This document shows, piece by piece, positions 26,157-45,335 of a stretch of 64,000 bases of DNA. Origin of the DNA: Aureispira anguillae (lineage in GTDB: Bacteria; Bacteroidota; Bacteroidia; Chitinophagales; Saprospiraceae); the NCBI RefSeq assembly GCF_026000115.1, contig NZ_AP026867.1, forward strand, positions 3,529,716 to 3,593,715, in the 5' to 3' direction. Both the position numbers and the translations under genes were made by a program. The notes beneath the pieces are model-generated. The model was given only the letters and a program-made list of their open reading frames with translations, was not told where the DNA came from and did no database searches. The stretch's first letter is position 1, and each line of letters begins with the position of its first letter.

Positions 26157-27962
26157 ATGATTAGTAAGAAAAGCATTCACACTAATTGGAGTCTGTTATT
26201 TGTAGCTTGTTTAATCTTTACATGCTATAGTTGTGGTACAGATTCCAAAAAAAATGACACGGGACAAGAAGGAACCTCTAACAGCCAAAATATCCCTGAT
26301 GATTTTACCGTTCGGATTCAAATAGGGGGCAATACAGACGGTTTAAACGTTGCCTTATCCAATAGTGCTATTTCATCTGAAATACTAAATTCTAATGTCC
26401 ATGCTGCACTTTTGGAGATGAATCCTAAAGATTTTAGTTTGCGCCCTTATCTAGCTACAGGAAGACCAATAATTAAAGAGTTAGACGACAACAAAATGTC
26501 AATAAGTTTTGAAATCAGAGAAGAGGCAGTTTGGGACAATGGAACCCCTATTACGGCAGAAGATTATGCCTTTACCATCAAAGCAATAAAAAATCCAAAG
26601 ACTAATGCTACCGCTCAACGTAGTTATTTAGAATTTGTTGAAGAGGTTAAGATTGATCCTAACAACCCTAAGAAATTTACCGTTATTTCTAACACACGTT
26701 ACCTATTAACGGAAGAAGTTTCAAGCTCTGTAGCAGTACTTCCTGCTTATTTTTATGATGCACAAGGGCTAATGAGTGATTTCACAATCTCAGAGTTGAA
26801 TGATCCAGCTAATCTAGATCGTTTGAATAAAGATCCTAGAATTCTTGATTTTGCCAATGATTTTAACACCAACTACAGCCATACCCCCAAGAACATTGTG
26901 GGAGCTGGTCCTTATCAGGTTACCGAAATTGCAACCCACCAACACGTAAAACTAGAACGCAAAAAGGAATGGTGGGGAGATAAGGTTGATGTTGATTATA
27001 TTGCTGCTTATCCTCAGAAATTATACTTCAAGATCCTTGACGATGACAATACTGCGATCTTGGCTCTAAAAGAGCAGGAAATAGATGTCATGACTTATAT
27101 TCCTGAAGAAAAGTTCTTGGATTTACAAAAAAATGAGCGTGCAACCAAAAACTTTAATTTATACACTCCTGACAATTTTGCTTATCGATATATTGGTTTT
27201 AATATGAACCAAGCTAAGTTAAGCGATGTTAGGGTGCGTAAAGCAATTGCTCATTTGATCGACAAAAAACATATTGTCGAAGATTTGTGCAGCAACTTAG
27301 CAACTCCTATTAATGGCCCTGTTAGTCCACTCAAAAAACACAACAATAAAAACTTGCCAGAGATAGCATTCAACATTGAAAAAGCGAAGCAGCTTTTGGC
27401 TGAGGCAGGATGGAAAGACATGGATGGCGATAATATTTTGGACAAAAATATTCAAGGTCAACAAGAAAGTTTAAAAATCAAGTTTTTATACCCACAAGGA
27501 AAGCAGTTCTACAAAGATATTGCTCAGGTACTCAAAGATGAAGCGGCTCGTGTTGGTATCGAGATTGACATGATTGCTAGCGAGTGGTCTGTAATGCAAG
27601 AGGATTTGAAAAAACGCAATTTTGACCTAACCTGCTTGGGATGGGGACAAGGACCTACCTTAGATGATTTTAAACAAATTTGGCACACCGAATCAGACAC
27701 TTACGATGGTAATAATTATGTTGGGTTTGGCAACCAAGAAAGCGATAAACTAATTGAAACAATTAGAGTCACTATGGATGAAGCAAAACGCCAAGAAATG
27801 TACTTTCGCTTCCAAGAAATTGTTGCAGATCAACAACCTTATGTATTCTTAGTTGCGCCCAAATTATGTATAGCAATTAACAAACGATTCAAAAATGCAG
27901 AGGCTAGCTCATTGCGTCCTGGTTATTCTGCTCGTTTATTCCAATTAAATTCTCCTAAATAA
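26157..27962 (+). CDS. Solute-binding lipoprotein of peptide ABC transporter (family 5), copy 1
   Basis: 601 residues with a lipobox (TCYSC) and a Gly/Ser/Asn linker. Family 5 (DppA/OppA) features are present: EEAVWDNGTPITAEDYAFTI at about 120-140, NIVGAGPYQV at about 248, then KLERKKEWWGD, VRVRKAIAHLIDKKHI at about 356-372, and a C-terminal FDLTCLGWGQGP region. It would bind oligopeptides or similar solutes outside the inner membrane and hand them to an ABC permease, none of which is encoded here. Its paralogue follows 650 bp downstream, and the two align end to end. Confidence 0.88.
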   Translation: MISKKSIHTNWSLLFVACLIFTCYSCGTDSKKNDTGQEGTSNSQNIPDDFTVRIQIGGNTDGLNVALSNSAISSEILNSNVHAALLEMNPKDFSLRPYLATGRPIIKELDDNKMSISFEIREEAVWDNGTPITAEDYAFTIKAIKNPKTNATAQRSYLEFVEEVKIDPNNPKKFTVISNTRYLLTEEVSSSVAVLPAYFYDAQGLMSDFTISELNDPANLDRLNKDPRILDFANDFNTNYSHTPKNIVGAGPYQVTEIATHQHVKLERKKEWWGDKVDVDYIAAYPQKLYFKILDDDNTAILALKEQEIDVMTYIPEEKFLDLQKNERATKNFNLYTPDNFAYRYIGFNMNQAKLSDVRVRKAIAHLIDKKHIVEDLCSNLATPINGPVSPLKKHNNKNLPEIAFNIEKAKQLLAEAGWKDMDGDNILDKNIQGQQESLKIKFLYPQGKQFYKDIAQVLKDEAARVGIEIDMIASEWSVMQEDLKKRNFDLTCLGWGQGPTLDDFKQIWHTESDTYDGNNYVGFGNQESDKLIETIRVTMDEAKRQEMYFRFQEIVADQQPYVFLVAPKLCIAINKRFKNAEASSLRPGYSARLFQLNSPK

Positions 27963-28613: not shown

Positions 28614-30419
28614 ATGATTAGTAACAAAAGCATTTACTCTAATCTGAGTTTGTTTCTTGTAGCATGTTTAATCCTCGCATGTTACAGTTGCAGCTCTGAT
28701 TCAAATGGAAAACAGGGAGAATCAACAAGCAAAAATATTCCTGACGACTTTACGGTCCGAATCTTATTAAGAGGAAATACTGATGGGCTCAATGTTGCAT
28801 TGGCACAAAGTGCTATTTCGTCGGAAATCCTAATTAACAATGTACATTGCTCTTTATTAGAAACCAACCCTAAAGGTTTCGATTTACGTCCTTATTTAGC
28901 CATTAAAAAACCAGAAATTGAAATTCTATATGATGACCATATAGCACTTAGTTACGAAATTAGAGAAGAAGCCGTTTGGGACAACGGCACTCCAATTACA
29001 GCCGAAGATTATGCTTTTACGGTAAAAGCCATAAAAAACCCTAAGACAAATGCAGCAGCTCAGCGTAGCTATTTAGAATTTATTGAAGAGGTTGAAATTG
29101 ATCCTCATAACCCAAAAAAATTTAAAGTAATATCCAACAAACAATATCTTTTGGCAGAAGAAGTTTCTGGAAGCATTTCTATCTTACCCGCTTATTTTTA
29201 CGATGCACAAGGGCTAATGAGTGACTTCGCCATTTCAGAGCTAAATGACCCTACCAATTCGGAACGCTTAAATGCTGATCCTAGAATTATCGATTTTGCA
29301 GCTGATTTTAATAGCAACTATAATCACATTCCCAAAAATATTGTTGGAGCAGGTCCTTATCAAGTTACCGAAATTGCAACCAACCAACATGTTAAACTCG
29401 AACGTAAAAAAGAGTGGTGGGGAGACAAAGTTGATATGGACTACATTGCTGCTTATCCAGAAAAATTACACTTCAAAATTATTGAAGATGATAACACAGC
29501 TATTCTTTCTTTAAAAGAGCAAGAATTAGACCTTATGACTTCTATTCCCGCCGAAAAATTCTTGGAATTGCAGAAAAATGAGCGTGCGCTGAAAAATTTC
29601 AATTTATACACGCCCAATAGCTTTTCTTACCGTTATATTGGTATGAATATGAACAACCCTAAACTAAACAATGTTAAAGTACGTAAAGCAATCTCGCACC
29701 TAGTTGATAAAAAATATGTCGTAGAGCAATTATGCAGCAACCTAGCTACTCCCGTCAACGGTCCTGTTAGCCCGCTCAAAAAATATTACAACAAAGCAAT
29801 CGCTACAACAGAATTTAATATTGACAAGGCCAAACAACTTTTAGCAGAAGCTGGCTGGAAGGACTCAGATGGTGATAACATTTTGGACAAGCGGATCAAA
29901 GGTCAAAAATTAAGTCTAAAACTGAACTTTTTGTACCCACAAGGCAAGCAATTTTATAAAGGTATGGCTCAAGTCCTCAAAGATGAAGCGGCTCGTGTTG
30001 GTATCGAAATTAATCTAGCAGCTAGTGAATGGTCTGTTATGCAAGATGACCTAAAAGAACGTCACTTTGATTTAACTTGCTTAGGTTGGGGACAAAGTCC
30101 TGCCTTAGATGACTTCAAGCAAATTTGGCATACAGAATCCAATACGTATGATGGGAGTAATTATACAGGATTCGGAAATTTAGATACCGATCAAATGATT
30201 GAAAAGATTAGACGTACCATGAACGAGGAAGAGCGAAATGAAATGTACCTCAAATTCCAAGAGGTTATTGCTGAGGAACAGCCTTATATTTTCTTAGTGG
30301 CTCCCAAACTATGTACGGCGATTAGCAAACGTTTCAAAAATGCAGAGGCTAGTGCATTACGCCCAGGTTATTTAGTGCGTTTATTTCAATTAGCAGATCA
30401 AGAACAACCTGTTAATTAA
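28614..30419 (+). CDS. Solute-binding lipoprotein of peptide ABC transporter (family 5), copy 2
   Basis: 601 residues; a tandem paralogue of the previous gene with the same segments (EEAVWDNGTPITAEDYAFTV, NIVGAGPYQV, KLERKKEWWGDKVDMDYIAA, VKVRKAISHLVDKKYV). The lipobox is ACYSC. Differences cluster in the N-terminal linker and scattered surface positions. The C-terminus is longer by a few residues (LADQEQPVN), and the linker is shorter. The copies probably bind different ligands or are expressed under different conditions. No permease or ATPase gene is adjacent. Confidence 0.88.
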   Translation: MISNKSIYSNLSLFLVACLILACYSCSSDSNGKQGESTSKNIPDDFTVRILLRGNTDGLNVALAQSAISSEILINNVHCSLLETNPKGFDLRPYLAIKKPEIEILYDDHIALSYEIREEAVWDNGTPITAEDYAFTVKAIKNPKTNAAAQRSYLEFIEEVEIDPHNPKKFKVISNKQYLLAEEVSGSISILPAYFYDAQGLMSDFAISELNDPTNSERLNADPRIIDFAADFNSNYNHIPKNIVGAGPYQVTEIATNQHVKLERKKEWWGDKVDMDYIAAYPEKLHFKIIEDDNTAILSLKEQELDLMTSIPAEKFLELQKNERALKNFNLYTPNSFSYRYIGMNMNNPKLNNVKVRKAISHLVDKKYVVEQLCSNLATPVNGPVSPLKKYYNKAIATTEFNIDKAKQLLAEAGWKDSDGDNILDKRIKGQKLSLKLNFLYPQGKQFYKGMAQVLKDEAARVGIEINLAASEWSVMQDDLKERHFDLTCLGWGQSPALDDFKQIWHTESNTYDGSNYTGFGNLDTDQMIEKIRRTMNEEERNEMYLKFQEVIAEEQPYIFLVAPKLCTAISKRFKNAEASALRPGYLVRLFQLADQEQPVN

Positions 30420-32891: not shown

Positions 32892-34604
32892 ATGAAAAAA
32901 CCAACAAATTATATCTACTTAATTATTTACATATTAATTATTACCATAAACAATCATACCAATGCACAAACTTGGGTTCAAAAAGGAATAGATATCAATG
33001 GAGGAGCTATGGCAAAAAAAGCAGGGCATTCTGTAAGTCTCAGTGCAGATGGTCATACAATTGCTATTGGTGCCCCCGACTATTCTAATGTCCTATATGG
33101 TGGATCAGGATCAGAATCAGGTCGTGTACGAATATATCAGTGGGTTGGGGGGAATTGGACTCAAAAAGGAGGCAGTATTTATGGCTCGTCATCTAACAAT
33201 TCAGCGGGCTCATCCGTTAGTCTTAGTGCCAATGGAAATATTCTTGCGATTGGATCACCAAGGAATAGTACAAATGGACTTTACGCTGGGCATGTTCGAA
33301 TTTACGAATGGAATGGAACAACTTGGATCAAAAAAGGAACTAATATTAATGGAGAAGCTGCTGGTGATCTATCTGGAGGTGCAATTAGCCTTAGCGCTGA
33401 TGGCAATTCTGTTATTATAGGAGCCCGGCTTAATGATGGCATTGGTATAGCTGCTGGGCATGCAAGAGTCTATGAATGGAATGGGACAGATTGGACTCAA
33501 AAAGGAGTAGATATTGATGGTGAAGCTACTTTTGATGAAGCAGGGCAGTCTGTTAGTATTAATGCCGACGGTAGCATCATTGCGATAGGAGCAGAAGAAA
33601 ATAGTGGTGGAATTGCTGGGTTCGCCTCTGGGCATGTTCGGATTTATCAATGGAGTGGTACCTCTTGGTTGCAAAAAGGAGCAGATATTGACGGTGAAGG
33701 AAGTGGCGATCGTTCAGGTAGAGCAATTCATCTTAGTGCTGATGGAAATTCTATTGCCATTGGCTCTGCTAACAATAGTAATTCTAGTCAAGGTTTTGTA
33801 AGAATTTATAATTGGAATGGAACAGCTTGGATTCGAAAAGGACAATCTCTTAATGAACGACCAACATCATCTGTAAGTCTTAATTATGATGGAAATAGGC
33901 TCGCTATTGGTTCGGTTAGATCTATTAACTTATCTCTTACTGGTTATGTTAGGATTTATAGCTGGAATGGAACAACTTGGGTTCAAGAAGGCACTGATAT
34001 TGTAGGTAGAGCCAGTAATGTTCAATCAGGTTATTCTGTTAGCCTTGATTCACTAGGACACACTCTTGCTATTGGCGCCATTGATGACTATAATAATGGC
34101 AGTGGCCATGTACAAATTTATACTACTTGCCATTACCTTGATACAACAGTAGGGCTATCAGGAGCAACACTAACCTCCAATGCTATAGGAATGACTTACC
34201 AATGGATCGATTGTAGCAATGGCAACAGCCCAATAACAGGCGCAACCCAACAAAGCTTCACGCCAACAACGAATGGACTCTATGCGGTAGAAATTAGTAA
34301 TGGTGTTTGTACTAAAACCTCCGCTTGTACTAATGTAACTGCTGTTAAAGTATCCGTAATAGAATCCCAAAACAAGTACCGTATATTCCCTAATCCATCC
34401 ACAGATATCCTCCACATAGAAAGAACCAATTCTACGAATTTAAACATCAGGGTCGTAGACAATCTTGGACAAATTGTACTTTCTAGCCGATCTAACAAAA
34501 CTAGAGCTACCTTAAATCTTCAACGCTTAAAACAGGGGGTTTATTACCTTGTATTAGACGATGGAAAAGAAATAACTTATCACAAATTTATAACCACAAA
34601 ATAA
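32892..34604 (+). CDS. T9SS-exported protein with FG-GAP-like β-propeller repeats
   Basis: 570 residues. The signal peptide ends about NHTNAQ. About seven repeats of roughly 55 residues follow, each with a core of VSLSADGHTIAIGAP, a GHVRIYQWxGxxW strand, and QKGxDIDGE turns. This is the pattern of FG-GAP/integrin-type propeller blades. A Cys-rich bridging part (CSNGNSPITGATQQ) leads to a C-terminal type IX sorting domain of about 75 residues: RIFPNPSTDILHIE, VVDNLGQIV and LKQGVYYLVLDDGKE. It is therefore exported through the outer membrane and cleaved or anchored at the surface. Function probably adhesion; inferred from the fold only. Confidence 0.85.
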   Translation: MKKPTNYIYLIIYILIITINNHTNAQTWVQKGIDINGGAMAKKAGHSVSLSADGHTIAIGAPDYSNVLYGGSGSESGRVRIYQWVGGNWTQKGGSIYGSSSNNSAGSSVSLSANGNILAIGSPRNSTNGLYAGHVRIYEWNGTTWIKKGTNINGEAAGDLSGGAISLSADGNSVIIGARLNDGIGIAAGHARVYEWNGTDWTQKGVDIDGEATFDEAGQSVSINADGSIIAIGAEENSGGIAGFASGHVRIYQWSGTSWLQKGADIDGEGSGDRSGRAIHLSADGNSIAIGSANNSNSSQGFVRIYNWNGTAWIRKGQSLNERPTSSVSLNYDGNRLAIGSVRSINLSLTGYVRIYSWNGTTWVQEGTDIVGRASNVQSGYSVSLDSLGHTLAIGAIDDYNNGSGHVQIYTTCHYLDTTVGLSGATLTSNAIGMTYQWIDCSNGNSPITGATQQSFTPTTNGLYAVEISNGVCTKTSACTNVTAVKVSVIESQNKYRIFPNPSTDILHIERTNSTNLNIRVVDNLGQIVLSSRSNKTRATLNLQRLKQGVYYLVLDDGKEITYHKFITTK

Positions 34605-34904: not shown

Positions 34905-34943
34905 ATAAAAAAACATGAGGTACTGTTGTCAGTACCTCATGTT
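34905..34943 (-). terminator. Intrinsic terminator of the 1802/282-residue gene unit
   Basis: A perfect 13-bp stem (AACATGAGGTACT at 34912-34924, complement at 34931-34943) with a 6-nt loop; read on the minus strand it is followed by seven T's. It lies 24 bp beyond the stop of the gene at 34968. Confidence 0.9.
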
Positions 34944-34967
34944 AGATTTGATATTAGCTGTATAATA

Positions 34968-35816
34968 TTAGTAGATCAATTCTACGTTTACGCCACTAGC
35001 CATTCTTGACAATTCGATTGCCTTAGGTCCTTCAGCACCAATAGACCCTTCAAACGCAGCCAAGGTATCGGCCGCATTTTCAGCATAGGCAATGGACAAA
35101 TAACGCACAAAATTGGCACTTGGTTCAGGAACAACCAATCCAGCTTTTAGGATCCCTGCACTTCCCAACCAAAAAGAAAGCTCCAAATATTCAGGGTCTT
35201 CCTCTAAGATCATTTCTAGCAGAGGCGTAGGCAATGGCGACATCTCTAAATGGCTCATCAGATCCATATACAATTGAATGTCTTCTTCCCCAGTATTGCC
35301 AAATAGTTCTGTGTGCAATATGGTAAATCTATTCCCCCCAACAGAGCGCCCCACTCGTACACAAGCATCTGCTTCAAAACTAGCATACCATTCTTCTAGC
35401 TTGTTTCGCTTGTCGTTTTTAGGGGTAACGGCAAAAGCATGTGCCAAGGGAAAAACACCATTAAGCGCCCAACCTGTTTCTTGTGTGCCTTGACTCAATT
35501 GCAGCCAAGTAGACAAATTTCCTTCAGGGATTAATTTAAAAATCTTTTGAAGTACCTTAACTTCCGATTCATTCAATTTGCTAGCCCCCATAAACTCGGC
35601 AAATTGTTGTAGCAATATATTTCGATCATTGTTCACCCAACAAGTCACTTTTTCTGCATCTACACTAGTTGACAAGTGTACCTCTGGCTCGTCCAAAGTT
35701 GGATTTAAAGGAAACAGCATTTGATTGAGCCATTCCGTTAACAATTCTTCGTTTTCTGGTTTTATAAACGGCAAAGTAATAACAGCACTTTGCGTTCTCA
35801 TGATAGTTTCTACCAT
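34968..35816 (-). CDS. Hypothetical protein, 282 aa, partner of the giant protein
   Basis: A soluble acidic protein without signal peptide. Visible stretches include PFIKPENEELLTEWLNQMLF, VTCWVNNDRNILLQQFAEFM, LSTWLQLSQGTQETGW, WYASFEADACVRVGRSVGGN, and MILEEDPEYLELSFWLGSAG. The composition and even mix of helix and strand suggest a compact globular fold of about 280 residues; I recognise no family. It begins 35 bp after the end of the 1802-residue gene and ends at a strong terminator, so it is its operon partner. An immunity protein, chaperone or adaptor role is a guess from context. An ATG five codons in (35801) is an alternative start. Confidence 0.65.
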   Translation of the reverse strand: MVETIMRTQSAVITLPFIKPENEELLTEWLNQMLFPLNPTLDEPEVHLSTSVDAEKVTCWVNNDRNILLQQFAEFMGASKLNESEVKVLQKIFKLIPEGNLSTWLQLSQGTQETGWALNGVFPLAHAFAVTPKNDKRNKLEEWYASFEADACVRVGRSVGGNRFTILHTELFGNTGEEDIQLYMDLMSHLEMSPLPTPLLEMILEEDPEYLELSFWLGSAGILKAGLVVPEPSANFVRYLSIAYAENAADTLAAFEGSIGAEGPKAIELSRMASGVNVELIY

Positions 35817-35851
35817 TTTATATTAATTTTGTTTTTTACCGATTAAATGTA

Positions 35852-38800
35852 TTAGAAAATCAACTTAATGTCCTTCACTCCCATCTCTGTCAATTCGCTC
35901 CACTCCGCATAGATACTGTTTAAGTCATTCTCCAAATCCTTTGTATTGGCTAAATCATTTCCATCAAATTCAACGGTATATTGAACTTGTTTAGGATGGT
36001 GGCCATCGTGGTTTCTATCCTCAATATAACGTTTTACAAAATCCTTATTGCTAAAAATACGATTATAATCTGAGTTATTCTGTGCATAATCTGTTCTAAA
36101 ATCCATTATAGATACAAATTTTTTGCACTTGGTTTCACGACGATACAGTTTTATTTGATCTTCTGTAATGTCCAATACCTTTGCAGCCTCATTAAAGAAC
36201 TTAAGATTATTAGCCGCATCAGCTCCATCGCCAATTCGATCAATTTTTTCCCAAATGTCTAAAATTTGATGGGACTCAAATGCATTATCTTTTAAGTCGT
36301 CTAATTCAACCTCTATATTATCACCGTAACCATTTTCAATAATTTTGATAATATCCTGCTGCTTTTCTTCAACAGCACCATCAAAAGCCTTTGTCATGGT
36401 TTTCTTTAACAATGCTTTGGTTTCACTATCTAATGGCTCTCCATTAAACGCTGTAAAATTGTTAATAGCGGTATCAACTAACCCTGTAAGACGTTGTTTA
36501 ATTCCCTTTGTACCATCCATTGTTCCCCAAACAGCAGCATTTCCAAGTGCTACAAGTACTTTAGGGTCTTGCAAATTTTTAGCGGCACTGGTAAACACCT
36601 CTAACAAACCTTTAGCTGGATCTTCTCCACCATTCCAACCTGCACCACCAAATTTAGGACTAGCATCAAACATTCCCCAACCATTGAACCAACTGGTAAA
36701 TGTATCTCCGTCATTTTTGAAGAAATTAAGTTTGGCATCACTCGCCATAAACTCACGATCTCCCTCTCTTGTATATCGATTAGCACCTGCCGCATTAGGA
36801 TTATGGAATTTCAAGAAGCCCCAATCCAATTCTTTGGCTAATGCTCCAACTCCTGTAGCCGCAGTTGTCATCAACAAGCTTTTAAGATATTTTCTAGGAA
36901 GGCTACTAATTTGGTTTTTACCCCATGTTTGGAAATCCCCAATTGGATCGCTCAAAACAGATTTTTTCTCATCGGTCAGATTCTTAACAAACTTAGAACC
37001 AATATCATTAAAGGTCGTCGTTAAAATGCCTTTAGCCGTTTTGAGGAATGGCGTACGCAAAATATTTTCCCAAGAACTCAACAATGGTTTGCCATCAGGT
37101 CCCGTTCCTTGAGAGAAAGTGCCCAATGCTTTTACGTCCAAAGCAAAAGCTAAGTTAGCTCCAATTAATCCAGTAATAGCTCCTGCTTGATCTGCCAATG
37201 CAGTAAAGAAGAAATCTTCAGCTCGCTCTCGCACGCCACCAACTCTGTCTCCACCAGTAATCATGCCCATCGTTTGATTGATGGTCGTTTGCATAGCCGT
37301 TGATGCCAAAGCCCAAACTAGTTGAACCACCCCTACAGCAGCTCCTACTCCAGAAGCCATAGATAAGGTAAACACAATAGCACTGGTTAATGCAGCAACC
37401 GCACCTGTTAGTTTAGCATCGTATTCTTTTTTGCGCTCCTCAAACTTTTCTTGCGCCTCTTGTAGTTTTCCTTCTGCCTCCTTCAAACTAGTAAGCAAGG
37501 CTTCTTTCTCTTGTTCCAATTCCTCTTTGGTCAAGACTCCTTCTAGCGCAGGAATACGCTCGTTTCTATCCCAACCTTTGGTCAAGAAATCCGCTGCTGC
37601 AACATCACGTTGCAACATTCTTGAACTTTGACTTGACCATTGTAAGCCTGTTTCGCTTTGTTTTTGAATTTCGAGGTCAGAGATTGCCTTGATGTCCATA
37701 CCAATCAACTTAATATCCGCCTCTGTAAATCCACCTAGTCTCTTAAAGAGCTTTTTCGCCTCATTGTCTCCGTCCGCCATCAACTCTTTTCCTACTTTAA
37801 AACGGATTTGTTTTTTGGCTTTTATTGCCTTTTGAGGAGGTAATACACGATCAATAGTTTCTAGAAAAGCAGGAGAAATATCAAAACGCTTAATCTTGAC
37901 ATTGAGTTCTTCTACTTGTGCTTCTTTGGTAGCACGAATTTCTTCATTTTGCTCATTTTCGAGGGCATCTAACAGTTCTTTTTTCCTTTCCACCCACTCT
38001 TCCATGGATTCAAAGTCAAAAGCCTCTTTGAGTAAATCATCGGCACTCATCAAATCTACCAGCTCTGTTACTTCGCTAGCATCCACTTGACGTTTAAGCA
38101 GCACGGATTCTCTAGAATCAATCAAAACATCCATTGCCTTAATTGGCTTATTGCCCTGAGCATTTGCTCTAATAATTCGACAGGCGTGTTTATCCTTATC
38201 TTGGATATAACTATGGGCATCCTCATCTAGTTCTTTCAATTTCTTCAAAACCTCCTCAATAGAAGGGCCTGCTTTTTGAGCCTCAAACATCGTTTGCAAC
38301 AAGGTATGCTCATCTCTAGAGAAATAGCCTTTCTCATATTCGTAAGCCAAACGTGCCGCCCAGAAGGCAGGATCTGTTTTTTGCTCTTTAAGCTCTTTCT
38401 TTTGATCTTCAATCTCAACAGGAGTTAAGAGCTTCGCACGATTTTTTCGATGTTTTCGTTTAAAGTTATCACTAGAAGCCTTTTCTCGATCATCACTACT
38501 GATCTCCGTATTAGAGAGCGGCGGTTTGAGTCCTAATTCAGCAGAGATCAATTCCCACTGCATCATATTGCTCTTAATCCCAAGCTGACCTAAGGTTCTA
38601 GCCTGCAACACTTTGATAAGATCTTTATCGGCTGCAATAGCTGCAAACTCAGGGCTATCAGGCTCTAGTTCATTCAAATATTTAAGCACATCGGTACCAA
38701 AATTTACGGTAAAACCAGATTTGGCAAGTTTTACTATTTTTTGGTAGATTCTCCCCTTTACACCATTGGATTTAAGCGTTTCGCTAATCTCTTTCTGAAT

Positions 38801-41260
38801 ATCGTGGTGCACACTTGCCTTGTCCATCAAAGCTTGTACGCCCAAATAACCTCGATCAAAGATTTTACCTCGCTCTTTTTCCAAGGCATTTTCTGCTTTT
38901 CTAAGTTCTTTTAATCGATCTATGTTATTAGCTCCATTCTCTTCATCATCTATTTTTTGCGCTACCTCCTTTAGTTCACCTTCTATCGCCGTCCAACGTT
39001 CTAGATCGCTATCGTTACAAAACTTAGCAACCACTGCCTTCTGAGGATCTTTAACCGCCCCATCAAACAAAATATTCTTGAACTGCTCTCCCATATCTTT
39101 ATCTTGCGCCCAACGAGAAATAAAGTTTTTGGTCGCTTGTTTAGCGGTCAAAGCTTCCAATTGATCAAAGATCGCATTGGTTTCTTTGCCCTCTGGCAAT
39201 TCCTTAGGTGCACCAATTTTTTCTTTGATATAAGCCAAATCTCCATCGTCAATTCCCGAATAACTAAACGTTCCTGACAAGTCCCGTAATTTTTTCATAA
39301 AACCACTCTCCTCATCAAGAATTGCCTCACGCTCTTCATCACTAGCATCTTTCAACCAAGTTGTAATACCAGCCATTAACTTATCTTTGTCTAAGCGTTT
39401 TCCGAAGCTTCCCTCTTTGCGCAAGCGATGAATCATACTGCACAAATATTCGTCATTGGCATCGTTTAACTCCTCAGGAGTACCATCTTTTTTGGCGTTT
39501 TTTAAATTCATATGCGCCCTAATTTGTTTGCGCATATTGGGGTGTTTATTTTCTAAATACACCTTGATAGCCCCTTCATAAGTTGATTCGTCCTTGGTTG
39601 TTCTCAAGATTTCATCAATTTGCTTAGAATCATAACCAGAGATAATTAAACTCATGGCATCCTCCCGCTCAACGGTAGATTCAATGTGCGTATCAACACC
39701 ACCAACAACTGCCAAGCTATCTCGCCAAGTTTTTCCCATTAAACCAAGCGCAAAAGCCAACTTAGCATAAGGCGACTCATAGCCTTTTAACTTGTCCAAC
39801 AAATAACGAGATCTCAAAGAACCTGCTTTAAAAACAGAAAGTATATCTCCAATAAGGTTGGATGTTTTCTTAAAAAGATGTTGGGTTGCAGCAATGTATT
39901 TATCTTCCAACTCATTAAAGACATTATCTGCCAGCCATTTCATAACAGCTCCAAAAGTCTTATCGTCATTATCCGCTTTTCCTCTATGTAGCAATTCGGC
40001 TAATCTTATCGCTCGATCATCTACGGTAGCGTCCCTAACGTCCTTTGCACGCTCACTCGATTTTTTATTACCAGCCGTTTCATCAAAAAGCGTCTTTGTT
40101 CCCGTCATATTTTGAGAATCCTTATGAATGCTTTTTTTCTCTGTAGCCAATTTAGCCTCTTCAGGAGCCGTTAGGAAGCGTTCATAAGCTTTGTACAAAG
40201 CCTCAAATCCTGCCAATTGTTTTTTGGTTTTGGAAGTAGAAACTTTGTCCTTTTTATGGTGTTCAATCCACTTTTTAATCATGCCCATCATTCCTGTAAA
40301 CAAGTCACGTTTGCGGTTGATGTCCATTTCTTTATTGAAGATCTCTATAGCTTTGCAAATTTTGCTATAGTTTGTCCCCTTCATTTTATCAATTTTGCCT
40401 GGTTTTTCAAGCCCAAAAGCTCCAATATCAGCAATAGCAAGCGTAGTTTTTCCCCCGTCATCATCTGCCAAAACAATTCCAGCCAAACCTGCACCTGTGT
40501 TTTTATCATCTTCATTCTGATTGTCTAACCAATCTAAGATAAAATCGTAATTCGCATTTTTTGCCGCAGCAGCCTGTTGTTGTTGAGGAGTGAGCAAAGC
40601 ATATTTTCCTTGCCAATTATCAATAAAGGTTTTGATTTTAACACGTACTGCCTTCTCTTTCTTTGCATCTTCTTTATAATCTCCCCTTTTGAGTGCAATA
40701 AATAAGGCTTGTACCTTATCGGTAGGATCTAAGTCATGAACTTGGTTTTGTTCATCGTAAACGGCTCCATCGTTCGCTCCAACATTTTCTATGTCTTTGT
40801 CTTCAATCTCATCATCTCCACCAAAACTAATTTCAAAGCCACCAGGCATTAACCATTTATCCAATTGCTTTTTAATGATCTTTCGCTTGGCTTTTCCCTT
40901 CTCAATCGTCAGCTCAACCAAGTTAGCACCATCCTTTACTTCCTCAAATTTAAGCGTACCTAAGGCATCAATGTTCTTATGTTCTTTGATTCGCTTTTTA
41001 AGGTAATTCTTCCAATTTCCAGAAGGCGTTCCCACCACCAAAATGGGCATATTCTCTTTATCTATATAATTGTGTTCAACACATAGATAAAAATTGATTT
41101 CAGCAGTAGGATCTTCCCCTATATGCTTTTGTGCCTTTTGCAAATCCTTTTGCAATTGCTTTTTAAATTCTTTGTATTTAAACAAACACTTATTGGGATC
41201 TAATTTTGCATCTTCTGCACTTTTTTTGTCAATTCTATCCGGGAAAAATCGAATCTTCAT
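35852..41260 (-). CDS. Giant α-helical protein, 1802 aa, unknown function
   Basis: No signal peptide. The first 150 residues look α/β (MKIRFFPDRIDKK, INFYLCVEHNYIDKE, PILVVGTPSGNW). Residues about 170-1280 are soluble, highly charged and mostly helical, rich in Lys/Asp/Glu, with repeated helix-pair regions such as KQIDEILRTTKDESTYEG and AGITTWLKDASDEEREAILD. A coiled coil spans about 1233-1283 (LTKEELEQEKEALLTSLKEA). Hydrophobic helices follow at about 1284-1330 (VAALTSAIVFTLSMASGVGA), about 1352-1377 and about 1457-1477. The last 280 residues are again soluble. Few Cys. The layout (long helical shaft, late membrane-active segment, distinct C-terminus) recalls contractile-injection or polymorphic toxin cargo, but I recognise no defining motif. 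It is in an operon with the 282-residue gene. Confidence 0.75.
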   Translation of the reverse strand: MKIRFFPDRIDKKSAEDAKLDPNKCLFKYKEFKKQLQKDLQKAQKHIGEDPTAEINFYLCVEHNYIDKENMPILVVGTPSGNWKNYLKKRIKEHKNIDALGTLKFEEVKDGANLVELTIEKGKAKRKIIKKQLDKWLMPGGFEISFGGDDEIEDKDIENVGANDGAVYDEQNQVHDLDPTDKVQALFIALKRGDYKEDAKKEKAVRVKIKTFIDNWQGKYALLTPQQQQAAAAKNANYDFILDWLDNQNEDDKNTGAGLAGIVLADDDGGKTTLAIADIGAFGLEKPGKIDKMKGTNYSKICKAIEIFNKEMDINRKRDLFTGMMGMIKKWIEHHKKDKVSTSKTKKQLAGFEALYKAYERFLTAPEEAKLATEKKSIHKDSQNMTGTKTLFDETAGNKKSSERAKDVRDATVDDRAIRLAELLHRGKADNDDKTFGAVMKWLADNVFNELEDKYIAATQHLFKKTSNLIGDILSVFKAGSLRSRYLLDKLKGYESPYAKLAFALGLMGKTWRDSLAVVGGVDTHIESTVEREDAMSLIISGYDSKQIDEILRTTKDESTYEGAIKVYLENKHPNMRKQIRAHMNLKNAKKDGTPEELNDANDEYLCSMIHRLRKEGSFGKRLDKDKLMAGITTWLKDASDEEREAILDEESGFMKKLRDLSGTFSYSGIDDGDLAYIKEKIGAPKELPEGKETNAIFDQLEALTAKQATKNFISRWAQDKDMGEQFKNILFDGAVKDPQKAVVAKFCNDSDLERWTAIEGELKEVAQKIDDEENGANNIDRLKELRKAENALEKERGKIFDRGYLGVQALMDKASVHHDIQKEISETLKSNGVKGRIYQKIVKLAKSGFTVNFGTDVLKYLNELEPDSPEFAAIAADKDLIKVLQARTLGQLGIKSNMMQWELISAELGLKPPLSNTEISSDDREKASSDNFKRKHRKNRAKLLTPVEIEDQKKELKEQKTDPAFWAARLAYEYEKGYFSRDEHTLLQTMFEAQKAGPSIEEVLKKLKELDEDAHSYIQDKDKHACRIIRANAQGNKPIKAMDVLIDSRESVLLKRQVDASEVTELVDLMSADDLLKEAFDFESMEEWVERKKELLDALENEQNEEIRATKEAQVEELNVKIKRFDISPAFLETIDRVLPPQKAIKAKKQIRFKVGKELMADGDNEAKKLFKRLGGFTEADIKLIGMDIKAISDLEIQKQSETGLQWSSQSSRMLQRDVAAADFLTKGWDRNERIPALEGVLTKEELEQEKEALLTSLKEAEGKLQEAQEKFEERKKEYDAKLTGAVAALTSAIVFTLSMASGVGAAVGVVQLVWALASTAMQTTINQTMGMITGGDRVGGVRERAEDFFFTALADQAGAITGLIGANLAFALDVKALGTFSQGTGPDGKPLLSSWENILRTPFLKTAKGILTTTFNDIGSKFVKNLTDEKKSVLSDPIGDFQTWGKNQISSLPRKYLKSLLMTTAATGVGALAKELDWGFLKFHNPNAAGANRYTREGDREFMASDAKLNFFKNDGDTFTSWFNGWGMFDASPKFGGAGWNGGEDPAKGLLEVFTSAAKNLQDPKVLVALGNAAVWGTMDGTKGIKQRLTGLVDTAINNFTAFNGEPLDSETKALLKKTMTKAFDGAVEEKQQDIIKIIENGYGDNIEVELDDLKDNAFESHQILDIWEKIDRIGDGADAANNLKFFNEAAKVLDITEDQIKLYRRETKCKKFVSIMDFRTDYAQNNSDYNRIFSNKDFVKRYIEDRNHDGHHPKQVQYTVEFDGNDLANTKDLENDLNSIYAEWSELTEMGVKDIKLIF

Positions 41261-41906: not shown

Positions 41907-43343
41907 TTATTCTTTTTTAAGTGCCAATTTACGGGCTAAAATTTCATCGAGTTGAGCAGGGTCAATCCGCTTGTATATAATTTTCTTGTCCTCGTCTAAC
42001 AAAACAATATATGGATTTGCCTTTAAATCATATCTTTTTTTTGCGACCGCCAAAGGATAAGCATTATCAGAGGTATTGATAAAATCCATCCCTTTCTCTT
42101 TTATCTTTTTCTTGCACTCGTCCAACTCCTTCCAACTTTTACTACAAACTCCAAAGACTTCAAAGCCCCTGTCCTTGTATTTATGATAAACAGGAATCAG
42201 TTGATCACTAGTTTTGCTGCAACTTCCACAATTAGGATTCCAAAAATAAATTGCGGTATATTTTGCCTTTACATCGTACAAACTAATTGGCGTTCCATCC
42301 ATTTTTTTCAGATAAACATTGGGCGCATATAGCCCACATTGCAAAGGTTTTGCGGTATTCACATTTTCACAGATCTTAATCAATTGAGCCGAATCTACCC
42401 AATCTGCCTCGCCTGAACAATAGTACTTTTCGCCTAAGAATACATAAACCGCATCCATGCAAATTATCTTGCTTTTTGCATACTTATTGAGCAGTTCAGC
42501 CGCCGCATACCTATACATTTTTTTGTTCTTAGATTTTAAGGTTTGTTGAACAATCCAATCTACTGCAACAATCACAGAATCGGGATGTTGAATGGTTAAT
42601 TTCTCGGTATAAATTTCCATTTTGTATTTGAACAAAGGGGTTCTAATCAATCGCTCATCTGAAAAATCAAACTGATCCCAAAAATGTTTTTTAGTCCAAT
42701 AAAACCAAGCCATTTTGTCCTTTTTTACGGTCTCAGGCACCGCTTTAGCCATCCCCTCTGCAATCAATTTAGAAGCCAAATAATCTGGATTTTGGTCAAT
42801 AATATCCAATTGATATTTTTTTAATTTTTGATCCAACGCTACAATATTAGCCTCCCATTTATGCTTTCTTTTCTCTTGTTTCTCCTCTTTTAGTTTTTGT
42901 TGCAACTTGGATTTTTCCTTTTGAATTTTTGCATTATATTTCAAATAGTCTAGATAGACTTGATTTTCTTTAGAACCTTCAATTTCCAGATGCTTACTCA
43001 AATCTCTGCTTTCGTCTAATTTGGTTGACAAAACCAATTCTTTTTGATCTTCTTCATTAGGGATCAAAAATTCAAAATAATTGTTATTGTCTTTTATTAG
43101 AACTAAATAAAGCCCTCCTTCTAGCGACTCCTCCCCTTCAAAAACAAATTCATTGTCTGCATTTTTTGAGGTTACCGTTTCATTGATGTATTTTTTGTCT
43201 CCCATGTGATATGCTAAAATGCAGGTGTCGTTTTCATAACCATCAATTTTTACACGGATATTATAACCGTCTTTTGCCAACAACATCTTAGTAGTTAACA
43301 TCAATATCCATACGATCGCCCATTGATTTAATAAATATCTCAT
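41907..43343 (-). CDS. DUF5106/thioredoxin-like secreted protein, paralogue 2
   Basis: 478 residues from the ATG at 43343; an in-frame start at 43394 would add a non-signal-like stretch before it. A signal peptide (NQWAIVWILMLTTKMLLA) precedes a β-rich domain (YNIRVKIDGYENDTCILAYH), a helical middle of DUF5106 character, and a C-terminal thioredoxin-like domain with YFWNPNCGSCSKTSDQLIPV (CGSC), then GFEVFGVCSKSW and the cis-Pro region LKANPYIVLLDED. It would be a periplasmic thiol-disulfide protein of the TlpA/ResA kind; these often help cytochrome or envelope protein maturation. It is the downstream copy of the gene at 43827; both align throughout. Confidence 0.85.
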   Translation of the reverse strand: MRYLLNQWAIVWILMLTTKMLLAKDGYNIRVKIDGYENDTCILAYHMGDKKYINETVTSKNADNEFVFEGEESLEGGLYLVLIKDNNNYFEFLIPNEEDQKELVLSTKLDESRDLSKHLEIEGSKENQVYLDYLKYNAKIQKEKSKLQQKLKEEKQEKRKHKWEANIVALDQKLKKYQLDIIDQNPDYLASKLIAEGMAKAVPETVKKDKMAWFYWTKKHFWDQFDFSDERLIRTPLFKYKMEIYTEKLTIQHPDSVIVAVDWIVQQTLKSKNKKMYRYAAAELLNKYAKSKIICMDAVYVFLGEKYYCSGEADWVDSAQLIKICENVNTAKPLQCGLYAPNVYLKKMDGTPISLYDVKAKYTAIYFWNPNCGSCSKTSDQLIPVYHKYKDRGFEVFGVCSKSWKELDECKKKIKEKGMDFINTSDNAYPLAVAKKRYDLKANPYIVLLDEDKKIIYKRIDPAQLDEILARKLALKKE

Positions 43344-43752
43344 TTTGTTTTGTTTTATTAATACCCCTCGAATCAACAGAGCATAAGCAGCCAATTCAGT
43401 GGGTAATATTTTATGAATGAATTAAATACAAAGAAGGTATCCAAGAAGAAGAATCTATGTCATCTTGGAATAAAAAGAGCCCCGATAAAATAAGGCAATA
43501 GAATAGCCAAGGAGCCTTAGGTTGGTTGAACCAGTTCGTTTTTGCTTCTTATACAACAACTTCTTTTGTTACTGTATACCTGAAGAACGTTAACGTTTCT
43601 CGAATCTTATGGAAGGGTTCTAGCTTTAACACCTAAATATATCGTTTTAAAACTAAAAAAATAGTTAAGCAAATGTTATTATAATGACTACTTATTTATT
43701 GCATAGCATGATACTCTAAAGACAGCTTGGGAGGATAAGAACTACCCTAAAT
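43344..43752. other. Intergenic region between the DUF5106 paralogues
   Basis: About 410 bp without a supported gene. A short palindrome AACGTTAACGTT lies near 43588. The copies are separated by the terminator at 43753-43787, so they are transcribed independently; no conserved leader like that of the solute-binding pair was seen. Confidence 0.4.
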
Positions 43753-43826: not shown

Positions 43827-45335
43827 TTATTTCTCATTGACTTTTAATTTTGCTTCATTTGCTTTTTCTTTTTTCTTAAACTCTTCTTCTACTGCTTTAT
43901 CAACATTGGGATCTTCTTTGGTTTCAAACCCACGTTTTAGAATATCTTCCAATTGTTTAGGATCAAGTCGTTTAAACATAATTTTTTTGTCTTCATCCAA
44001 TAAAACCAAATAAGGGTTCACCTTGATGTCATAAATCTTTTTGGCAACGGCCAAGGGATAAGCCTCATCAGAAGTATTGATAAAGTCCATTCCTTTATCT
44101 TTTATTTTTGCCTTACACTTGTCAATTTCCTTCCAATTTTTGCTACACACTCCAAAAATTTCAAAGCCCATATCCTTGTACTTATTATAAACGGGCACTA
44201 ACTTATCTGTTGTTTTACTACAATTTCCACAGTCAGGATCCCAAAAATAAAGCGCCACAAATTTTGCTTGTACTTCATGTAAATTGACAGGAGTGCCATC
44301 CATTTTTTTCAAGCGAATATTAGGCGCATACAAACCACATTGCAATGGTTTTAGGGTTCTTACATTTTCACAAATTTTCTCTAATTGCGCTGAGTCTACC
44401 CAATCGGCATGTCCCGCACAATAATATTTTTCACCCAAAAATACATAAACAGCATCCATACAGATGACCTTAGTTTGAGCATATTTATTCAACAATTCAG
44501 CAGCAGCATATTGGAACATTTCTTTATTGCCTCCTTCAAGTAATTTTTGCAAGATAAAATCTACCGCAGTAATAACAGAATCTGGCGTTTTAACGGCTAA
44601 TTTTTCTGTCCAAAATTCGATTTTGTCTTTAAAAATAGGCGTGCGAATCAAACGAGCATCTGTCCAATCAAAATTATCCCAATAATGCGCTCTAAAATAA
44701 TAAAAGCCCTCTGCCTTTGTGTAGGTCTTAGGTACTTCTGGTTGCATAGAAGCAGCAATCAATTTGGCGGATAAATAATCTGGATTCTTCTCGATTAAAG
44801 CCAATTGATATGTTTTTACAGAAGCACCAATTTTAACACGCTCTTCTTGTAATTTTTTCTTTTTTTCTGGATTTTTTTCTGCCTCAATTTCTTTGGCAAC
44901 TTTGCCGTCTTTTGCTCTTGTATCTGCCAAAAATTTTAGGTAGTCAAGAAACACCTTATTATCGGCAGAACCTTCAATTTTTAGATGCTTGCTCAAGTCC
45001 CTGTTTCCGTCCAACTTAGTAGACAAGAACATCTTTTTTTGATCTTCTTTGTTAGAAACTAAAAACTCAAAATATAAATTTTCGGGCTTGGTCAAAATCA
45101 AATAAATTCCCCCTTTCAAAGACTCATCGCCCTTAAAAAGCCATTCTCCTTTATTGTTCCTTGAAGTTAGGGTATCCTTAACATATGTTTTTTTGCCCAA
45201 ACGGTATCCTAAAATACAAGTATCATTTTTGTACCCGTCAATTTTTACACGAATATTATAACCGTCTTGTGCGGTGGCAAAAGATGCCCAAGCAATTAAA
45301 ACAAATAATATCGATCGTCTAAGTAATTGATTCAT
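43827..45335 (-). CDS. DUF5106/thioredoxin-like secreted protein, paralogue 1
   Basis: 502 residues. The signal peptide (ILFVLIAWASFATAQ) is followed by the same order as the next gene: YNIRVKIDGYKNDTCILGYR, a helical middle (KKLQEERVKIGASVKTYQLA), YAAAELLNKYAQTKVICMDA, and the thioredoxin domain with YFWDPDCGNCSKTTDKLVPV (CGNC) and IKVNPYLVLLDEDKKI. It has an extra charged tail (VEEEFKKKEKANEAKLKVNEK, not repeated in full here) after the domain. Its likely place is the periplasm. The copies differ most in the helical middle, so they probably have different partners. Confidence 0.85.
   Translation of the reverse strand: MNQLLRRSILFVLIAWASFATAQDGYNIRVKIDGYKNDTCILGYRLGKKTYVKDTLTSRNNKGEWLFKGDESLKGGIYLILTKPENLYFEFLVSNKEDQKKMFLSTKLDGNRDLSKHLKIEGSADNKVFLDYLKFLADTRAKDGKVAKEIEAEKNPEKKKKLQEERVKIGASVKTYQLALIEKNPDYLSAKLIAASMQPEVPKTYTKAEGFYYFRAHYWDNFDWTDARLIRTPIFKDKIEFWTEKLAVKTPDSVITAVDFILQKLLEGGNKEMFQYAAAELLNKYAQTKVICMDAVYVFLGEKYYCAGHADWVDSAQLEKICENVRTLKPLQCGLYAPNIRLKKMDGTPVNLHEVQAKFVALYFWDPDCGNCSKTTDKLVPVYNKYKDMGFEIFGVCSKNWKEIDKCKAKIKDKGMDFINTSDEAYPLAVAKKIYDIKVNPYLVLLDEDKKIMFKRLDPKQLEDILKRGFETKEDPNVDKAVEEEFKKKEKANEAKLKVNEK

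What the first reader, a model, noticed from the sequence alone, without database searches (positions are those of the whole stretch)
34905..41260. Two-gene unit with a giant 1802-residue helical protein and a 282-residue partner
Seen in sequence: both genes are on the minus strand with 35 bp between them, and a strong terminator follows. The large protein has an α/β start, about 1100 charged helical residues, a coiled coil at about 1233-1283, then clusters of hydrophobic helices at about 1284-1330, 1352-1377 and 1457-1477, and a soluble C-terminus. It has no signal peptide and no sorting domain. Inference: the layout fits cargo or toxin proteins that end in a membrane-active region, with the small protein as immunity, chaperone or adaptor. 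Parts such as KQIDEILRTTKDESTYEG recall helical-repeat (annexin-like) domains, but this is impression, not identification. No family of known function is recognised, so it is the best candidate here for an undescribed system.
Basis: partly seen in the sequence, partly recalled or inferred. Interest (0 to 1): 0.75.

Follow-up and report, generated by a model that had tools for sequence, protein, structure and literature searches.

The report
Giant predicted prey-injection protein with partner
A filamentous marine bacterium of a group known for hunting other bacteria carries a giant protein and a small helper gene that look like one item of a large, apparently unnamed set of weapons sharing the same front-end tag and probably fired by the cell's contractile injection machine.

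Summary
The two genes are real: 1802 aa and 282 aa, minus strand, 35 bp apart, with a 14-pair terminator behind. Their order is conserved: giant body and partner occur as 8 adjacent pairs in 7 genomes, never apart in the 18 genomes searched (one further partner hit, E 0.0085, taken as noise). The genus is Aureispira; the other pairs are in Saprospira and a Chitinophagales MAG.

The main new point is the giant's first ~130 residues: an apparently undescribed domain that opens all 41 proteins collected, 175-1963 aa long. A profile gives 102 matches in 18 of 398 family genomes; in a phylum sample only the own genome of 395 matches. None of the 41 has a signal-peptide-like start. Some are fused to calpain protease, EndoU-like or peptidoglycan-binding domains. 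Others are small and head genes for muramidase, CHAP amidase or D,D-carboxypeptidase. In one Aureispira relative a tagged protein and its follower lie inside the contractile-injection operon.

Best reading: the domain is a cargo marker or adaptor for these predators' subtype-iv T6SS; the giant is a large effector with a membrane-active region. The partner, modelled confidently as five ααββ repeats, is more likely chaperone or adaptor than immunity protein. Delivery, toxicity and partner function are untested. The annexin resemblance was not supported.

The parts
35852..41260 (-). giant protein, 1802 aa, predicted cargo/effector
   Evidence: ATG ORF; long relatives in Saprospira and a MAG
40823..41203 (-). 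N-terminal marker domain, residues about 20-146
   Evidence: profile shared by 41 collected proteins, always N-terminal; model H-H-E-E-H-E-E-H-E but low confidence, pLDDT 50.8
37571..40093 (-). body, residues about 390-1230, helix-rich by eye, mostly the best conserved part of the giant
   Evidence: mean identity to 3 relatives mostly 0.18-0.39 per 50-residue block, one block (751-800) 0.08; no structure predicted
37112..37564 (-). coiled-coil-like stretch (by eye) followed by hydrophobic helices, residues about 1233-1383
   Evidence: hydropathy; weak, sub-threshold resemblance to T3SS translocators: AopB E 0.006, SseC E 0.015
35855..36463 (-). poorly conserved C-terminal end, residues 1600-1802
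   Evidence: identity 0.05-0.13 per 50-residue block against 3 relatives
34968..35816 (-). partner protein, 282 aa, five alpha-alpha-beta-beta repeats in the model
   Evidence: ATG ORF; directly behind the giant in 8 of 8 pairs; AlphaFold2 pLDDT 89, pTM 0.86
34912..34943 (-). intrinsic terminator, 14-pair stem, T tail

Best explanation
The pair is one cargo unit of the contractile injection machine (a T6SS of subtype iv, related to eCIS) that Aureispira and Saprospira carry. The giant begins with a ~130-residue marker domain. In this bacterial group the marker is either fused in front of a toxin-like body or made as a small stand-alone protein whose gene precedes a separate effector gene; it would dock the cargo on the machine. 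The 1650-residue body is then carried into prey, where the coiled coil plus hydrophobic helices (about 1233-1383) probably insert into or perturb a membrane. The 282-residue partner most likely binds the giant before firing, as chaperone or adaptor. Shown: the genes, pair conservation, the shared N-terminal domain with diverse bodies, no signal-peptide-like starts, and one marker-plus-follower unit inside an injection operon. Inferred: docking, delivery into prey, membrane action and the partner's role.
For: (1) Marker domain within the first 44 residues of 41 of 41 collected proteins of 175-1963 aa. (2) Bodies or neighbouring genes with effector-type domains: calpain twice (2.4e-18, 2.5e-32), peptidoglycan-binding, sub-cutoff EndoU; neighbouring genes with muramidase 4e-67, CHAP 7.9e-11, M15/VanY, SLT. 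(3) A signal-peptide-like start in 0 of 41 versus 118 of 338 other ORFs in the same loci. (4) In G002 the marker protein, its 568-aa follower and a 360-aa gene sit between baseplate-J and a 259-aa gene whose relatives are directly adjacent in G000, Aureispira CCB-E and S. grandis Lewin. (5) The eCIS/T6SSiv-type marker Pvc16_N occurs in 16 of 18 genomes with the domain, against 41 of 150 family genomes. (6) A paper's passages name a T6SS subtype iv in Aureispira sp. CCB-QB1 (PMC11566945). (7) 8 giant-partner pairs in 7 of 18 genomes, never apart.
Against: Only one marker locus was seen inside an injection cluster; 47 other fetched loci, covering about half of the 102 matches, hold no homologue of the own sheath, tube, VgrG, PAAR or baseplate at E <= 1e-3, and the own cluster is ~2 Mb from the window. 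Marker and machine are both seen in one clade, so their co-occurrence may be shared ancestry; about 35 of the 41 machine-positive family genomes have no marker match. The operon preference is modest (24 of 41 vs 110 of 298, p 0.01; the background pairs were limited to ORFs of 150 aa or more, followers to 90 or more), and 3 of those 24 followers do have a signal-like start. The giant has no recognisable toxin domain; the translocator resemblance is below thresholds and absent in single relatives. Hydrophobicity is weak in the two MAG giants.
Confidence: 0.6

Rival explanations
1. The N-terminal domain is a lineage-specific intracellular or envelope module with no link to the injection machine; the giant is a structural or scaffold protein of these long filaments and the partner its assembly factor.
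For: Clade-limited distribution (18 of 398 family genomes, 1 of 395 in a phylum sample); the giant's body is conserved at 25-30% over most of its length; the other marker loci examined are not beside injection genes.
Against: Fusions to calpain, EndoU-like and peptidoglycan-binding domains, and followers with muramidase and CHAP domains that have no signal-like start; a unit inside the injection operon of G002.
Confidence: 0.2
2. Same delivery reading, but the 282-aa partner is an immunity protein that protects kin from the giant's membrane-active region.
For: One-to-one linkage immediately downstream, 8 of 8 pairs, as in toxin-immunity pairs.
Against: The partner has no signal-like start; its only hydrophobic stretch (211-229, mean 1.43) falls mostly in beta strands of the model. 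It is more conserved than the giant, 66% vs 47% between tandem copies, and was not found alone in 18 genomes, as orphan immunity genes often are (general knowledge).
Confidence: 0.22
3. The partner is an enzyme of the aromatic-prenyltransferase (PT-barrel) type that modifies the giant.
For: Predicted order of elements is five consecutive alpha-alpha-beta-beta units in 282 residues, confident model, which is the textbook description of the PT barrel (recalled).
Against: No sequence match to any prenyltransferase in Pfam or PDB profiles; the fold search could not be run, so barrel closure is unproven.
Confidence: 0.12
4. The marker family is a polymorphic anti-phage or self-killing system acting inside the cell.
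For: Proteases, nuclease-like and nucleotidyltransferase-like bodies also occur in such systems (general knowledge).
Against: Peptidoglycan hydrolases with peptidoglycan-binding repeats have no obvious substrate in the cytosol. The PADLOC library was not searched, so this was not tested by profile.
Confidence: 0.06

Closest known systems
RIX-domain T6SS effectors and secreted adaptors (PMC10435454, abstract seen)
   Same: An N-terminal domain in front of diverse toxin bodies; domain-bearing proteins that enable delivery of other cargo.
   Different: RIX is described in Vibrionaceae; here the domain is ~130 residues, in Saprospiraceae, and goes with an eCIS-like machine. Homology to RIX was not tested, and delivery is not shown here.
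MIX domain and similar vgrG-linked domains (PMC10673891, abstract seen)
   Same: Occurs fused at the N-terminus of an effector or as a stand-alone gene.
   Different: The marker loci examined here are not in vgrG loci, except one unit in the injection operon of G002.
eCIS-associated toxins with N-terminal signal peptide and DUF4157 (PMC11297309, passages seen)
   Same: Cargo of eCIS-like machines; DUF4157 too is found in the toxin itself or in a neighbouring gene, and its authors suggest a chaperone role in cis or in trans.
   Different: The leaders are described there as hydrophilic, probably unstructured and without a conserved sequence, with genes near the core; here a conserved domain, no DUF4157 hit, genes mostly remote.
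T3SS translocators (SseC/YopB/AopB)
   Same: Coiled coil followed by hydrophobic helices, with a dedicated chaperone (recalled).
   Different: Matches are weak (15.4 bits against a 30.2 cut-off; E 0.006); the giant is several times longer; no T3SS context was examined.

Membership tests
T6SS subtype iv / eCIS-like effector | genome encodes the machine | tested here: met
   sheath, tube, hub with OB domain, PAAR, gp25, baseplate J and Pvc16_N in the own genome
T6SS subtype iv / eCIS-like effector | gene family linked to the machine's operon | tested here: met
   met once, in G002; not at the window's own locus; no homologue near 47 other loci
T6SS subtype iv / eCIS-like effector | machine-dependent delivery | not testable with these tools
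   needs mutants and secretion assays
eCIS-associated toxins with DUF4157 | DUF4157 domain in the protein | tested here: not met
   no such Pfam hit in the giant, 3 of its relatives or 13 other marker proteins
RIX/MIX-type marker domain | N-terminal, in front of diverse bodies, also stand-alone | tested here: met
RIX/MIX-type marker domain | sequence homology to RIX or MIX | not tested
   no RIX or MIX sequence was compared; the window's domain has no Pfam hit at E <= 1
RIX/MIX-type marker domain | necessary and sufficient for secretion | not testable with these tools
   bench test
SseC/YopB translocator | PF04888 above cut-off | tested here: not met
   15.4 vs 30.2 bits, window segment only, none of 3 relatives' segments
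annexin-like repeats | annexin repeat profile | tested here: not met
   no Pfam annexin hit; hhalign with a recalled annexin A5, probability <= 0.4%; no structure of the body
T9SS cargo | signal peptide and C-terminal sorting domain | tested here: not met
PT-barrel (ABBA) prenyltransferase, partner | five alpha-alpha-beta-beta units forming a closed barrel | tested here: inconclusive
   order of elements fits; fold search never accepted; no sequence family match
toxin-immunity pair | partner neutralises the toxin | not testable with these tools
   bench test

The most novel reading that the evidence does not exclude
A previously undescribed ~130-residue N-terminal domain marks the cargo of the subtype-iv contractile injection machine in the filamentous predators Aureispira and Saprospira. 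It works both fused to effectors and as stand-alone adaptors, and so gives a handle on a whole predation arsenal: cell-wall hydrolases, calpain-like proteases, nuclease-like proteins, and giant proteins with a co-conserved partner of five alpha-alpha-beta-beta repeats.
Probability: 0.58. Interest if true: 0.85.

Novelty: new variant of a known kind. Interest (0 to 1): 0.72.

Why it matters
How these filamentous predators kill is partly known (a subtype-iv T6SS in Aureispira), but how that machine picks its cargo is not described in the papers my searches returned. If the domain is the cargo tag, the effector set of each genome can be read off by one profile (9 matches here, at least 10 in S. 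grandis Lewin), and cargo recognition becomes testable with one small domain. It would also extend the RIX/MIX principle, one tag fused or in trans, to the eCIS-like branch of injection systems with a conserved, probably folded domain.

Tried and rejected
Annexin repeats: rejected on sequence. Phage origin of the giant: no match in phages or viral contigs. VipB-type T6SS: PF05943 in 0 of 150 family genomes (it rings in E. coli), so the machine is of the Pvc16/eCIS-like branch; the T6SSiii-specific TssC family was not searched. A hairpin motif in a 92-aa protein of the own injection cluster looked like the start of some neighbouring proteins, but phmmer gave no match. A 328-aa protein in the MAG's injection cluster looked like the partner by eye; the profile comparison says no. 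Barnase hits of the partner profile (E 0.18 and worse) are taken as chance. The AopB/SseC resemblance is kept only as a weak lead. The marker-domain model is poor (pLDDT 50.8), so no fold claim is made for it. Dropped from counts: the L065 and L057 matches (E 1.1e-6 and 1.6e-5) are not among the 41 proteins; G000 2437088 (E 0.217) is noise; G692 (E 3.2e-5) is doubtful but is counted in 18 of 398.
Full report
WHAT IS THERE. The window holds an 1802-aa ORF (35852-41260, minus) and a 282-aa ORF (34968-35816, minus), 35 bp apart, followed by a 14-pair terminator at 34943-34912. Neither matches a known family above cut-off in Pfam, NCBIfam or PHROGs. Hydrophobic stretches of the giant occur at about 1281-1327 and 1350-1383. 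No homologue of the own injection cluster and no second marker domain is among 52 ORFs of the window.

WHERE IT IS. The window is G000:C1:3529716-3593715 of a 7.79 Mb genome. G003, given by the tool as same genus, has a second contig whose first 15 kb are 100% identical to a plasmid of Aureispira sp. CCB-E, so the genus is Aureispira. The species is not identified.

THE PAIR IS CONSERVED. A long relative of the giant lies in Saprospira grandis Lewin (27% over 1620 columns), with a 284-aa relative of the partner (35%) 26 bp behind it. S. grandis DSM 2844 has the same pair. A Chitinophagales MAG has two tandem pairs. Among the 18 genomes that carry the marker domain, the giant body is found 8 times in 7 genomes and the partner 8 times in the same 7, adjacent each time; one giant, in G698, is cut by a contig edge. 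A further partner hit in G005 at E 0.0085 is taken as noise. Only 1 of the 9 Aureispira genomes searched has the pair, so it is accessory there. The giant's last 200 residues are nearly unconserved (0.05-0.13 identity per block), while blocks in 400-1300 mostly reach 0.18-0.39, one block being 0.08.

THE MARKER DOMAIN. The first ~130 residues (20-146) recur elsewhere. A five-row profile hit 5 of 150 family genomes. A 40-row profile hit 18 of 398 family genomes with 102 matches, a lower bound because scored candidates are capped at 10 per genome, and 1 of 395 phylum genomes, the own one. Positive are the 9 Aureispira genomes examined, 6 genomes of the genus of G079 (Saprospira), G078, G098 and, doubtfully, G692 (E 3.2e-5). 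I collected 41 such proteins from six genomes, two weaker matches (L065, L057) not being recovered. In all 41 the domain starts within the first 44 residues, and lengths run from 175 to 1963 aa. By a crude hydropathy test none has a signal-peptide-like start, against 118 of 338 other ORFs of 150 aa or more in the same loci (p 1e-7).

WHAT IT IS ATTACHED TO. I scanned 17 longer or selected proteins for bodies, of which 16 carry the marker: calpain protease in two (2.4e-18, 2.5e-32), peptidoglycan-binding domains in three, EndoU in one just below cut-off (22.8 vs 25.3 bits); the rest have no hit or only sub-cutoff ones. The 918-aa protein of the own genome shows a nucleotidyltransferase-like GS...DYD motif by eye only. 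Short marker proteins are often followed by a separate gene; overall 24 of 41 marker genes have a same-strand follower within 120 bp, against 110 of 298 background pairs, the latter limited to ORFs of 150 aa or more (p 0.01). 3 of the 24 followers have a signal-like start themselves. Of ten neighbouring genes scanned (followers, array members or genes just upstream), six have domains: N-acetylmuramidase (4e-67), CHAP (7.9e-11 and 2.6e-6), D,D-carboxypeptidase with peptidoglycan binding, SLT transglycosylase, and thioredoxin plus weak OmpA; four have none. The muramidase and one CHAP gene directly follow a small marker gene and have no signal-like start.

LINK TO AN INJECTION MACHINE. The own genome has a contractile injection cluster at about 5.58-5.60 Mb with sheath, tube, hub with OB domain, PAAR, gp25, baseplate J and Pvc16_N. 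VipB of the usual T6SS was found in 0 of 150 family genomes. In G000, Aureispira CCB-E and S. grandis Lewin the baseplate-J gene is next to a 257-263-aa gene. In G002 a 303-aa marker protein, a 568-aa follower and a 360-aa gene lie between the same two genes. The gene behind the EndoU-like fusion also has a relative inside the MAG's injection cluster (E 1.6e-7). Pvc16_N is present in 16 of 18 marker genomes; the two misses are 63% and 88% complete, the latter being the doubtful one. In the 150-genome set, all 5 marker genomes have it, against 41 of 150 overall (p 0.001), but this is confounded by ancestry. Against the link: no homologue of the own cluster lies in 47 other fetched marker neighbourhoods, about half of all matches. 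Passages of PMC11566945 state that Aureispira sp. CCB-QB1 has a T6SS of subtype iv and cite the ixotrophy paper; that paper itself was not held.

HOW IT PROBABLY WORKS. The marker would be recognised by the machine, either in cis or as an adaptor that brings a separate effector, as reported for RIX (abstract) and MIX (abstract); a cis or trans chaperone role is also suggested for DUF4157 of eCIS toxins (passages of PMC11297309). The giant would be a large cargo whose coiled coil and hydrophobic helices act at a prey membrane. The only sequence lead for this is weak: AopB, a T3SS translocator, is the best PDB profile match (E 0.006) and SseC the only Pfam match of the window segment (E 0.015, far below cut-off); the three relatives' segments do not show it. 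The two leads are not independent, AopB being an SseC-type protein (recalled). The partner model is confident (pLDDT 89, pTM 0.86) and reads as five alpha-alpha-beta-beta units. From recalled knowledge that order fits the PT barrel of aromatic prenyltransferases, but no sequence supports it and the fold search was never accepted. Because the partner has no signal-like start and is better conserved than the giant, I favour a chaperone or adaptor role over immunity; this is inference.

NOVELTY. Searches of the held library for Aureispira or Saprospira with T6SS, contractile injection, rhapidosomes and cargo leaders returned no description of this domain in what I saw (listings; passages of two papers; outline and abstract of two more). 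Subscription papers are not covered. The principle, an N-terminal tag of polymorphic injected effectors, is known; this domain, its host group and its association with the eCIS-like branch appear new.

Noticed in passing
L066:6414-6962, L129:6743-7285, L130:10299-10850, L131:11644-12180 (own genome): Four marker-domain loci of the own genome carry a GNAT acetyltransferase gene (Acetyltransf_3, E 5e-16 to 2e-19) after a gene of unknown kind; possibly a self-protection enzyme.
   Followed up: partly
L056:8691-17771 (G078): A marker gene is followed on the same strand by five genes that share peptidoglycan-binding-type repeats; the two scanned have M15/VanY and CHAP domains.
   Followed up: partly
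L070:7117-13008 and L125:7641-13532: A second giant (1963 aa) with the marker domain, no significant similarity to the first in its body, and Gly/Ala-rich hydrophobic stretches, in Aureispira CCB-E and G008, without the 282-aa partner.
   Followed up: partly
own injection cluster, L093/L100, about G000:C1:5584.8-5587.6 kb: A 791-aa and a 92-aa ORF of unknown kind sit between gp25 and baseplate J; the larger one's first 110 residues have only a weak match in CCB-E's cluster (E 3.5e-5).
   Followed up: partly
41907-43394 and 43827-45335: Two neighbouring minus-strand proteins, 61% identical, with DUF5106 and AhpC/TSA thioredoxin-like domains.
   Followed up: partly
26157-27962 and 28614-30419: Two tandem plus-strand ORFs of 601 aa, 75% identical; the second looks like a lipoprotein solute-binding protein by eye.
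   Followed up: partly
32892-34604: FG-GAP-type repeat protein with a T9SS sorting tail (Por_Secre_tail, 7.4e-16) next to the pair on the other strand.
   Followed up: no
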